Virus record (IMG/VR): IMGVR_UViG_3300042924_005117
Coordinates: 1 to 32,752 of that record
Direction: 5' to 3' (one strand)
DNA: 32,752 bases
DNA from: a virus
The position numbers and the translations under genes are program-made. This document shows positions 16,262-18,967 of this stretch, piece by piece. Positions within the stretch are counted from its first letter, which is position 1. Each line of letters opens with the position of its first letter. The notes under the pieces were generated by a model that saw nothing but the letters and a program-made list of their open reading frames with translations, ran no database searches and had not been told where the DNA came from.

Positions 16262-18712
16262 GTGTCTAGTGAGACGCAAGAGCTGCTGGCGTTTGTGCGC
16301 CAGTTGCCCGTAGGACCGGCTTACGCGCCCATTTACGCCAAGGGGCAGGTCTTCGGAAAGCACCAAGACATATCGAAAGGCAAGGCGCCCCACGAGAACT
16401 CCCACCACACGGTGATGAGTCCTGCGGACGTGGCGTTGCTGATTGAGCGCCAGCCTGAGGTCTTCAAGGCAGTCGGTCTGTTTACCGGGATTCGCAGCGG
16501 CGGTCTCGTGATTCTTGATGTAGACGCAAACCTCGCCAACCTGCGAAAGAAGTGGGGCGAGACGCTGGATGGCGCTCCGGTAGTGACGTCCACCAAGAAG
16601 AACGCCGCCAAATTCATCTTCCGCGTGCCGGAAGCGCAGCGTTCCAAGGTCAAGGGGATTAGCGGGCGCGTCACAGGACAGGGCTACGAGGTCCTGTGGG
16701 GGATGCAGGGCGTTATTGCGGGGGAATATCCCGGCAGCAGCGATGGCAAGGCTCCAGAGGGCTTTTACGCGCTCCAGGGGGATCTTTCACAGGTGCCTGA
16801 GGCGCCGGAGTGGCTTCTGGCTGAAATGCGGGCAGCGAAGGATGCCGAGGCACCGGCGCAAGGCTTAATCAAGAACCGCAAAGGGCTTGATTTTTCTGGT
16901 CGCACAGAAGACGAGCTGTTTGATCTTGTGCAGGACTGTCTTTCGGTTCTGCCTCACCTTGGACGCGGCACCGAGGATTACTGGTGGTCTGTAGGCGCAA
17001 TGATTGCCGAGGCACTTCCTAATGAGAAGGGCCTCATGTTGTGGTCCTCGTGGAGTGCCGAAGATCCAGCGTTTGAGGACGACTGGAAAAATGGCAGTCC
17101 TTGTGAGGCAAAATGGCCGCACATCCTTAAGCGGGCTGGACGGGCTGAAAACAAGGGACTCGGCTCTCTGATTTTTCTGGCTGATCAGTACGACGCTGAG
17201 CGCCAGCGATTCCGTGAATCAAGCCGCACCACGCTTGGTGAGGTGGAGAAGGATCGGGTTCAGCGGTTCCAGGCGGTTGGTCTTTCGCACGACGAAATTA
17301 TCCGGCGGGCTACCGCCGCGATGAAGCTCGAAAACCCCTCCGAGGTCCAGCACACAATCTTCGAGATCGCCCAAGCTGCTGGCTACCGGGATCCTGCGGC
17401 GATTGTGCGCCTGCTGATTGCGGACCAGGAATATCGCCGTGGTTCGCAGGGCGGCAGCCTGAAGGAGATTTTCAGCGTGGAGGAGCAGCCGATTGAGTAC
17501 CTGATTCCTGATCTGCTGCCGAAGCCGGGCACGCTGCTGATGCACGGGCGTGGTGGCTGCGGCAAGACCATGGCAGTGATGACTCTTGCCAAGCACATCG
17601 CACGCGGAATCCCGTTCTCCGTGCGTGGGGCTGAGGTGCCTGTCGAACAGGGCAAGGTTTTGTGGCTTAACGGCGATCAGAACAGCCGGCGGATCCGCAA
17701 GCAGTTTGCTGACCTGGATTTCACCGCTGACGACCCTGTGGTGGTTCAGAACAAGGTCTCGATGCTCTGGTATCCCTGGTTCATCCAGCAGATCGAAGAG
17801 CACCGTCCCAAGCTCGTGGTGTGGGACTCCGTGACCGCTTGTATGCGCGGATCGGCTTATGACCAGAACAAGGCTGAGTACGCCGAGCCCATCTACTGGT
17901 ACAGCGCCGAAAACGGCGAGAGCTTCCCGGCAACCACCATCGTCTTCATCCACCACGCAGCCAAGAGCGGCGACTTCAGGGGCACCTCAGCGCTCCAAGA
18001 CGCCGTAGACGAGTCTTGGGGCATCAAACGCCCGGAGAAGTCCGAACTGGAGCGTGTAGGGGCCTCTGCGCGGCTTATCACCATCGGTAAGAGCCGTGAA
18101 GGCAACGAGGGCAAGCAGCTGATCCTGCGCCAGAAGGAAGACCTCACCTTCTCGCTCCAGGACCTGCCTCCGGTGGATGGTGTCGATTCCGCCAGCCCCG
18201 CCTCGATCATCGACCGGGTGCTGCAGCGGCTTCGTACCAAGGGCGTGCCCATGACTAAGGCGGAGCTCAACGCCGATCCGCTTCTGGGCGGCAGTGTCAG
18301 CGCAATCTCCAAGTCGCTCCAGCGCTTGGTGGACCGGGGGTTGGTTGTTGTTGAGGGGGATCGTTCCAGCAAGCGCTATTTAGCTGTTCTCGCGCGCAGG
18401 GGGGGAGGAGGTATTACCTGTCCCAAAGAAGAAGAAGTCAGTACTGGAGCGACTTCTCAGGAAATCGGCTGTCCCGGTTTGTCCCAAGTTGTCCCAAGTT
18501 GTCCCAAACCGGCCCCTGGAGCGGCAAAAGGACAAGTTGGGACAAAACGGGACAAACTGGGACAGCTAAAATCGTCAGAACTGTTGCAGCGCAGTGGTTC
18601 TGACAGTTTGGGACAGCAGGACATTTCTATCTTCACGCGCGAGGAGGCTGAGGCGGATCGGACCAGGCAGGAGCTGAACCAGATGCTGAAGGACGCTGAC
18701 ATCTGGGGCTAA
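16262..18712 (+). CDS. Primase-helicase (Prim-Pol plus RecA-like ATPase)
   Basis: The 816-residue protein starts at a GTG with AGGAG about ten bases upstream. Residues of about 1-200 look like a bifunctional primase-polymerase domain, with the acidic pair in LDVDAN (Asp 86 and Asp 88). Residues 210-310 resemble a PriCT domain (YWWSVGAMIAEALPN). The RecA-like ATPase has Walker A GRGGCGKT (429-436), Walker B VVWDS (Asp 522), and VFIHHAAKSGDFRGTSAL as a sensor region. A winged-helix-like part near 660-710 follows. The last 100 residues are low complexity and their DNA carries the repeat array described separately. It opens the early plus-strand operon. Confidence 0.88.
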   Translation: MSSETQELLAFVRQLPVGPAYAPIYAKGQVFGKHQDISKGKAPHENSHHTVMSPADVALLIERQPEVFKAVGLFTGIRSGGLVILDVDANLANLRKKWGETLDGAPVVTSTKKNAAKFIFRVPEAQRSKVKGISGRVTGQGYEVLWGMQGVIAGEYPGSSDGKAPEGFYALQGDLSQVPEAPEWLLAEMRAAKDAEAPAQGLIKNRKGLDFSGRTEDELFDLVQDCLSVLPHLGRGTEDYWWSVGAMIAEALPNEKGLMLWSSWSAEDPAFEDDWKNGSPCEAKWPHILKRAGRAENKGLGSLIFLADQYDAERQRFRESSRTTLGEVEKDRVQRFQAVGLSHDEIIRRATAAMKLENPSEVQHTIFEIAQAAGYRDPAAIVRLLIADQEYRRGSQGGSLKEIFSVEEQPIEYLIPDLLPKPGTLLMHGRGGCGKTMAVMTLAKHIARGIPFSVRGAEVPVEQGKVLWLNGDQNSRRIRKQFADLDFTADDPVVVQNKVSMLWYPWFIQQIEEHRPKLVVWDSVTACMRGSAYDQNKAEYAEPIYWYSAENGESFPATTIVFIHHAAKSGDFRGTSALQDAVDESWGIKRPEKSELERVGASARLITIGKSREGNEGKQLILRQKEDLTFSLQDLPPVDGVDSASPASIIDRVLQRLRTKGVPMTKAELNADPLLGGSVSAISKSLQRLVDRGLVVVEGDRSSKRYLAVLARRGGGGITCPKEEEVSTGATSQEIGCPGLSQVVPSCPKPAPGAAKGQVGTKRDKLGQLKSSELLQRSGSDSLGQQDISIFTREEAEADRTRQELNQMLKDADIWG
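18470..18564. repeat. Two facing arrays of TGTCCC repeats with 10-base spacing
   Basis: TGTCCC(A/G) copies start at 18470, 18480, 18490 and 18500. Reverse-oriented copies lie at 18527 (degenerate), 18537, 18547 and 18557. Single further copies are at 18419 and, reversed, at 18608. The 10-base period is not a multiple of three, so it does not come from a repeated peptide. All copies lie in the 3' end of the primase-helicase coding sequence. This looks like an iteron array for an origin or a DNA-binding protein. Confidence 0.8.
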
Positions 18713-18719
18713 AAGCTGT

Positions 18720-18744
18720 AGAGTTATGCGGCTCGCATAACTCT
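18720..18744. promoter_or_regulatory. Perfect 11-base inverted repeat against the start codon of the RHH gene
   Basis: AGAGTTATGCG and CGCATAACTCT are separated by GCT. The second arm ends one base before the ATG at 18746. It occupies the place where a ribosome binding site should be and lies eight bases past the primase stop. It could be the operator of the ribbon-helix-helix protein or an RNA hairpin that limits translation. Confidence 0.7.
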
Positions 18745-18745
18745 T

Positions 18746-18967
18746 ATGCCTAGAACCACTGTTTCTCTGGACTCAAAGACAGGGGCGTGCCTTCGTTACT
18801 TGGCTAACCAAGAGCGGAGGTCCGCCTCGAACCTTGTCAACCTTCTCATTTGGGACAAGCTTCGGGATTGGACAAACCACTGGAAGCCTGAAGAAATCGA
18901 ACAGCTGCTCGACTCTTTCGAGGTAGCCGACCTAAAAAACTCAGATGGGCCACTTCACGCCGCCTAA
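18746..18967 (+). CDS. Ribbon-helix-helix (CopG/Arc-like) DNA-binding protein
   Basis: The 73-residue protein starts MPRTTVSLDSKTGACLRYLA, a short strand followed by a helix. ERRSASNLVNLLIWDKLR forms the second helix, the usual RHH layout. Such proteins bind DNA as dimers and often repress their own promoter. A perfect inverted repeat lies directly before its start codon. The C-terminal 25 residues are acidic and outside the domain. It follows the primase-helicase gene by 33 bases. Confidence 0.72.
   Translation: MPRTTVSLDSKTGACLRYLANQERRSASNLVNLLIWDKLRDWTNHWKPEEIEQLLDSFEVADLKNSDGPLHAA

What the first reader, a model, noticed from the sequence alone, without database searches (positions are those of the whole stretch)
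18419..18616. Iteron-like array with exact 10-base period inside the primase-helicase gene
Four TGTCCC copies on the plus strand (18470, 18480, 18490, 18500) face four copies on the other strand (18527 degenerate, 18537, 18547, 18557). Outlying copies are at 18419 and 18608. Ten bases is one helical turn, so a protein could bind all copies on one face. The period does not match codons. The peptide here is low complexity, as if the DNA signal constrained it. Iterons inside or near the initiator gene are known for phage origins such as lambda O. This one, in a Prim-Pol/RecA-type gene, appears unusual.
Basis: partly seen in the sequence, partly recalled or inferred. Interest (0 to 1): 0.78.

Follow-up and report, generated by a model that had tools for sequence, protein, structure and literature searches.

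The report
Phage replication origin inside its initiator gene
A virus of bacteria appears to carry the landing strip for its own DNA-copying protein inside that protein's gene, and relatives swap the landing strip and the protein's reading head together, which makes it directly testable how such viruses choose where to start copying.

Summary
The array is real. All five pairs share one exact dyad at 18517. The sites fall in all three codon phases, inside a disordered linker (aa 712-800) between a winged-helix domain (aa 646-708) and a C-terminal helix of a Prim-Pol/PriCT-2/RepA-type (AAA_25) helicase.

97 distinct tails from related phages carry a lineage-specific array at the same place in nearly every case. 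Motif (TGTCCC, TGTCCG, TCGGAAAA, TGTCAAA, TGTA[AT]AAA) and spacing (10, 16 or 17 bp) change by clade; the dyad arrangement largely persists. The motif tracks the winged helix, and winged helix plus array exchange as one block. In distant Prim-Pol/RepA genes, including cultured phages, arrays with other motifs start at the stop codon.

Best explanation: self-encoded iteron origin bound by the protein's own winged helix. This is inferred, not shown biochemically. The RHH protein is not the likely binder, and the 10-bp helical-face argument is not general. SaPI Rep, SCC Cch2, RSF1010 and pRN1 are precedents: a new variant of a known kind.

The parts
16262..18712 (+). Primase-helicase gene (816 aa): Prim-Pol, PriCT_2, AAA_25 (RepA/RecA-type helicase), C-terminal winged helix, disordered linker, terminal helix
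   Evidence: Pfam; AF2 model and PDB fold match to RSF1010 RepA helicase
18179..18400 (+). Winged-helix DNA-binding domain (aa 640-713)
   Evidence: AF2 pLDDT 83, H-H-H-E-E, matches MarR/ArsR-type winged helices; weak MarR_2 hit
18296..18334 (+). Predicted recognition helix (aa 679-691)
   Evidence: AF2; residues vary with motif class
18395..18661 (+). Codons of the disordered linker (aa 712-800) that hold the array
   Evidence: pLDDT 24-41
18419..18424 (+). Left outer site TGTCCC
   Evidence: conserved position
18470..18475 (+). Left array site 1 TGTCCC
18480..18485 (+). Left array site 2 TGTCCC
18490..18495 (+). Left array site 3 TGTCCC
18500..18505 (+). Left array site 4 TGTCCC
18529..18534 (-). 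Right array site 4, degenerate (AGGACA on +)
   Evidence: sequence; intact GGGACA at this position in L004
18539..18544 (-). Right array site 3
18549..18554 (-). Right array site 2
18559..18564 (-). Right array site 1
18610..18615 (-). Right outer site
18444..18451 (+). Central element CTGGAGCG of the left outer unit; conserved in different reading frames across clades (LER vs TGA)
18575..18603 (.). Palindrome TCAGAACTGTTGC-AGC-GCAGTGGTTCTGA of the right outer unit; stable only in the TGTCCC clade
18665..18706 (+). Conserved C-terminal helix (aa 802-815) beyond the array

Best explanation
The array is an intragenic iteron-type replication origin. The winged-helix domain encoded immediately upstream (aa 646-708 of the same protein) binds the TGTCCC sites in duplex DNA. 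The two mirror-image half-arrays assemble two sets of the primase-helicase head to head about the dyad at 18517; the RepA-type helicase domains open the DNA there and the Prim-Pol domain makes the first primers. The DNA requirement fixes the sequence of a linker peptide that does not need to fold. Shown here by comparison: dyad arrangement, lineage-specific motif change across the sites of an array, co-inheritance with the winged helix, and recurrence at the 3' end of distant homologous genes. Inferred: binding by this winged helix, helicase loading, and origin function.
For: Site geometry kept in 25 related tails in three codon phases. 97 distinct tails: in nearly all, the sites of one array share one motif, but the motif differs by clade. 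More sites fall in dyad pairs than expected (TGTCCC 194 vs 110; TCGGAAAA 24 of 25 vs 10.5). Motif class needs 8 changes on the winged-helix and AAA trees (minimum 7) but 17 on the Prim-Pol tree. L009 and L027 are 80-97% identical to about aa 616, then 54-70% over winged helix plus array, then 85-89% again in the next conserved gene: one exchanged block. Recognition-helix position 10 is R/K in all TGTCAAA, TGTCNAA and GGCAAAA loci and never in 29 TGTA[AT]AAA loci; Glu at position 7 occurs only with TGTCCG (12/12). A blind DNA scan for TGTCCCN4TGTCCCN4TGTCCC outside the family gave 24 loci with an AAA_25-like gene; in 22 the array lies within -149 to +93 bp of its stop codon. In 8 of 16 annotated phages/plasmids with distant RepA-type genes the densest repeat starts within -4 to +39 bp of the stop: GGTACA x11, GGTTCA x13, GCGTGACA x11, GCGGAGAT x12 and others. 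The linker is disordered; the winged helix is confidently modelled.
Against: No biochemical or replication data. No clear GC-skew turn. No pronounced AT-rich unwinding element (AT 0.42-0.50 in the array). 59 of the TGTCCC-array loci found by pattern have no AAA_25-like gene, though some lie in other initiator-like genes. Eight of 16 sampled RepA-type records have no array. Winged helix and array are adjacent, so joint exchange could partly be linkage. The residue-base correlations rest on few independent events. Motifs of L064, L072, L076 and a few others were weak.
Confidence: 0.78

Rival explanations
1. The inverted repeats act as an RNA or single-strand hairpin (transcript element, or a pRN1-like stem-loop origin) rather than as duplex binding sites.
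For: The window strand folds far better than shuffles (z -9.8). The right outer unit has a supported palindrome (alifold -5.5 vs null mean -0.13). Outer spacers are 42% complementary across the dyad against about 15-34% in shifted registers. pRN1 and Bordetella phage BIP-1 are proposed to use large stem-loops 3' of the gene (PMC4234260).
Against: Hairpin stability of the outer units is not kept outside the TGTCCC clade (mean z about -1 to 0.3). The spacers between the 10-bp repeats pair only 198 of 376 times. In distant genes the arrays are largely direct repeats, often after the stop codon.
Confidence: 0.08
2. Operator: the array is a binding site for autoregulation or for control of the downstream gene, bound by the winged helix, the RHH protein or a host factor.
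For: Tandem 10-bp sites suit cooperative repressors such as RHH proteins (own knowledge); an RHH-like gene (Pfam RHH_5, sub-threshold) follows at 18746.
Against: The RHH gene is absent or replaced in most loci that keep the array. The array is at the gene's 3' end, far from its own promoter. Motif changes follow the winged helix and helicase domain.
Confidence: 0.08
3. A partition (centromere), packaging or recombination site placed in the gene.
For: The nearest winged-helix structures include plasmid partition proteins (AspA 5k5o, pNOB8 4rs8).
Against: Terminase is about 7 kb away; no ParA appeared among the family hits; arrays recur next to replication genes specifically.
Confidence: 0.05

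Closest known systems
SaPI Rep and SCC Cch2 initiator helicases with downstream iteron origins (PMC7581432)
   Same: A C-terminal DNA-binding domain of the initiator helicase recognises short repeats directly downstream of its own gene; two hexamers proposed; Cch2 C-terminal domain binding to its repeats was shown biochemically
   Different: Separate primase and helicase rather than one polypeptide; here the helicase is RecA/RepA-type fused to Prim-Pol, and the array lies inside the coding sequence with exact dyad layout
RSF1010 oriV with RepA, RepB' and RepC (summarised in PMC4234260)
   Same: RepA-type helicase (best PDB match), a dedicated primase and iteron recognition cooperate
   Different: Three separate proteins; ssi hairpins for primer start, which are not general here
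pRN1 ORF904 and Bordetella phage BIP-1 type (PMC4234260)
   Same: Prim-Pol, helicase and C-terminal winged helix in one protein; origin 3' of the gene
   Different: SF3 helicase; origin described as a large stem-loop without identified binding motifs
Phage lambda O and ori-lambda (own knowledge)
   Same: Iterons inside the initiator gene, in a linker between domains
   Different: Non-enzymatic initiator with an N-terminal DNA-binding domain; direct iterons plus AT-rich region; not homologous
PrimQH and PolpTN2 AEP families (PMC5862659)
   Same: AEP plus PriCT plus RepA/DnaB-type ATPase plus C-terminal winged helix; the winged helix was proposed to recognise the origin
   Different: That was a prediction without any target sites; candidate sites are proposed here

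Membership tests
Iteron-type origin | Multiple short repeats of one motif clustered next to or in the initiator gene | tested here: met
Iteron-type origin | Cognate initiator with a DNA-binding domain encoded alongside, specificity matched to the repeats | tested here: inconclusive
   Winged helix present; motif and winged helix co-vary and co-exchange; no binding assay
Iteron-type origin | AT-rich DNA unwinding element | tested here: inconclusive
   Only a modest AT rise
Iteron-type origin | Replication starts there | not testable with these tools
   GC skew uninformative
RSF1010-like RepABC oriV | RepA-type hexameric helicase | tested here: met
   Foldseek 1nlf E 6.8e-10; hexamer itself not tested
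RSF1010-like RepABC oriV | ssi hairpins for primer start | tested here: not met
   Right-unit palindrome only in one clade
pRN1-type stem-loop origin | Conserved stem-loop rather than repeated binding motif | tested here: not met
   Motif conserved, continuous pairing not
SaPI/SCC-type downstream iteron origin | Array immediately 3' of the initiator helicase gene and C-terminal DNA-binding domain | tested here: met
   Met in position in distant homologues; intragenic in the window
SaPI/SCC-type downstream iteron origin | Rep/Cch helicase family | tested here: not met
   AAA_25/RepA fold instead
RHH (CopG/omega-like) operator | Cognate RHH gene retained with the sites | tested here: not met

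The most novel reading that the evidence does not exclude
A widespread class of phage replication modules in which the DNA-reading domain of a fused primase-helicase and its dyad origin form one overlapping specificity cassette (in the window about 550 bp, winged helix through array and tail). The origin is translated as a tolerated linker, its motif is rewritten throughout in step with the reading helix, and phages swap the cassette by recombination, which would give related co-infecting phages mutually exclusive origins.
Probability: 0.5. Interest if true: 0.75.

Novelty: new variant of a known kind. Interest (0 to 1): 0.62.

Why it matters
It gives candidate target sites for the C-terminal winged helix of Prim-Pol/RepA-type replication proteins, which published work proposed as origin readers but without sites. 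It predicts origins for cultured phages (Rhizobium 16-3 and RHph_N65, Alteromonas PB15 and XX1924, Idiomarinaceae 1N2-2, Salicola CGphi29) as well as for many uncultured phages. It offers a natural series of matched protein-DNA specificity switches, and an example of an origin that has become coding sequence.

Tried and rejected
RHH protein as binder (absent from most array-bearing loci). Ten-bp helical face as the defining feature (16-17 bp in other clades). RNA or cruciform hairpin as the general principle. Rfam and tRNA: nothing. GC skew for an origin turn: uninformative. A GTG primase signal in the central element, suggested by the NrS-1 and pRN1 primases (PMC8718748): the trinucleotide is present in only some clades by inspection, not pursued. 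Host: the genome scan returned only two MAG contigs, so the host is unresolved. The closest named phage proteins to the window gene cover at most a third of it. Literature searches in the held library found no description of these arrays; that is not proof of absence.

Full report
WHAT IS THERE. The gene at 16262-18712 encodes an 816-aa Prim-Pol / PriCT_2 / AAA_25 protein. Near its 3' end TGTCCC occurs on + at 18419, 18470, 18480, 18490 and 18500, and in reverse at 18529 (AGGACA), 18539, 18549, 18559 and 18610. Starts of every mirror pair sum to 37029, so all ten sites share one exact dyad at 18517. Nine exact sites in 197 bp is above anything in 5000 synonymous shuffles (maximum 6) or codon-order shuffles (maximum 4). 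The sites use all three codon phases, so protein-level selection cannot produce them.

PROTEIN CONTEXT. The AlphaFold model gives confident Prim-Pol and helicase domains and a winged helix at aa 646-708. A stretch with pLDDT 24-41 follows at aa 712-800, then a short terminal helix at 802-815. The array (aa 720-785) lies in the disordered stretch. The helicase part is closest to RSF1010 RepA; the winged helix modelled on its own (pLDDT 83) resembles MarR/ArsR-type DNA-binding domains. The low-complexity peptide is therefore a linker that can tolerate a DNA constraint.

CONSERVATION AND CONCERTED CHANGE. Sixty-six related viral loci, extended with two further queries, give 97 distinct gene tails. 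Site offsets [0,51,61,71,81] are kept in 25 TGTCCC-clade tails; the span is 197 bp, or 209 bp where 12 bp are inserted at the centre. A clade with 65% identical proteins has TGTCCG instead at most of its sites. Further clades use TCGGAAAA, TGTCAAA or TGTA[AT]AAA with 16-17 bp spacing. Sites fall in dyad pairs about 1.4 to 2.3 times more often than random placement in the five larger classes. The 10-bp period is thus one solution; dyad layout is the more general feature. A second element, CTGGARCG, in the middle of the outer unit is kept in different reading frames (LER in one clade, TGA in another), again pointing to nucleic-acid-level selection.

COUPLING TO THE WINGED HELIX. Mapping motif class on trees needs 8 changes for the winged helix and for the helicase domain (minimum 7), but 17 for Prim-Pol. 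L009 and L027 are 80-97% identical through the gene up to about aa 616. They fall to 54-70% over winged helix, array and tail, have different small genes next, and return to 85-89% in the following gene; L008 and L026 show the same pattern. Array and winged helix therefore move as one block. Within the recognition helix, position 10 is Arg/Lys where the motif has C at its fourth base (TGTCAAA, TGTCNAA, and the aligned base of GGCAAAA) and Val/Ile/Gln/Thr/Ala in all 29 TGTA[AT]AAA loci; Glu at position 7 is seen only with TGTCCG. In the TGTCCC clade position 10 is variable (S, A, R, K) beside an invariant Lys at 11. These correlations rest on few independent events and adjacency could contribute, so they are suggestive.

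GENERALITY. A blind scan of viral contigs for three TGTCCC at 10-bp spacing hit 15 loci of this family. Outside it, 24 hit loci contain an AAA_25-like gene, and in 22 of these the array lies within -149 to +93 bp of that gene's stop codon. Pfam confirms Prim-Pol and/or AAA_25 in the ones tested. Fifty-nine other hits have no such gene; some of their arrays lie in genes matching 'replication initiation' or 'replisome organizer' families. Among 16 annotated phage or plasmid records with distant RepA-type genes, 8 have their densest repeat starting within -4 to +39 bp of the stop codon, with several different words (GGTACA, GGTTCA, GGGACA, GCGTGACA, GCGGAGAT, AAGTGAG), and 8 have none (analysed in 102 and 111). 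The simplest history, an inference, is that the array originally followed the gene and the reading frame grew through it in the window's family; in L182 repeats lie on both sides of the stop.

MECHANISM. Most likely the winged helix binds the repeats, two mirror-image assemblies form about the dyad, the RepA-type helicases open the DNA, and Prim-Pol primes. Binding, loading and origin function are inferred. RSF1010 (RepC on iterons, RepA unwinding, RepB' priming; PMC4234260) is the functional parallel with the three roles on separate proteins. SaPI Rep and SCC Cch2 (PMC7581432) are precedents for a C-terminal domain reading repeats immediately downstream of its own gene. pRN1 and BIP-1 (PMC4234260) are precedents for origins 3' of a Prim-Pol-helicase-winged-helix gene, described there as stem-loops. 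Kazlauskas et al. (PMC5862659) predicted origin recognition by winged helices of such proteins without naming sites. A swap of a winged-helix domain between near-identical phage replication initiators has been reported in Gordonia phages (PMC10684548).

ALTERNATIVES. Hairpin or RNA function is weakened because outer-unit hairpins are not stable outside the TGTCCC clade and spacers between repeats pair only about half the time. An RHH operator is weakened because the RHH gene is missing or replaced in most array-bearing loci. Packaging or partition lacks support.

LIMITS. All evidence is comparative. GC skew and AT content do not independently mark an origin. Most loci are metagenomic fragments and the host is unknown. 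Literature coverage is limited to the open papers held.

Noticed in passing
whole window; related contigs: CTGGARCG is about tenfold over-represented (29 vs 3.0 expected) and strongly one-sided: 26 on the - strand, with the only + copies at 18047, 18444 and 18516. In the representative related loci the region left of the gene has 0 on + and 264 on -. In some marine records the orientation flips at the array, in the window it does not. Possibly a primase-start, Chi-like or other polar signal.
   Followed up: partly
18713-18945: The slot after the gene is hypervariable: RHH-like genes of several kinds, a roughly 230-aa ORF, or nothing, followed by a conserved 113-aa ORF.
   Followed up: partly
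L183, L195, L201, L224, L243, L246: TGTCCC arrays at 10-bp spacing also lie inside genes of a different type, several matching phage replication-initiator families (O-like, replisome organizer), suggesting the same word is used by unrelated initiators.
   Followed up: partly
[quoted passage not shown] possible terminator or operator.
   Followed up: no
L052:6460-6587: In-frame 33-bp repeats expand the C-terminal tail of this relative after the array.
   Followed up: no
L011:6221-6262 and other relatives: Some relatives insert 12 bp at the dyad centre or have an extra site at 11-bp spacing while the overall mirror layout is kept.
   Followed up: partly
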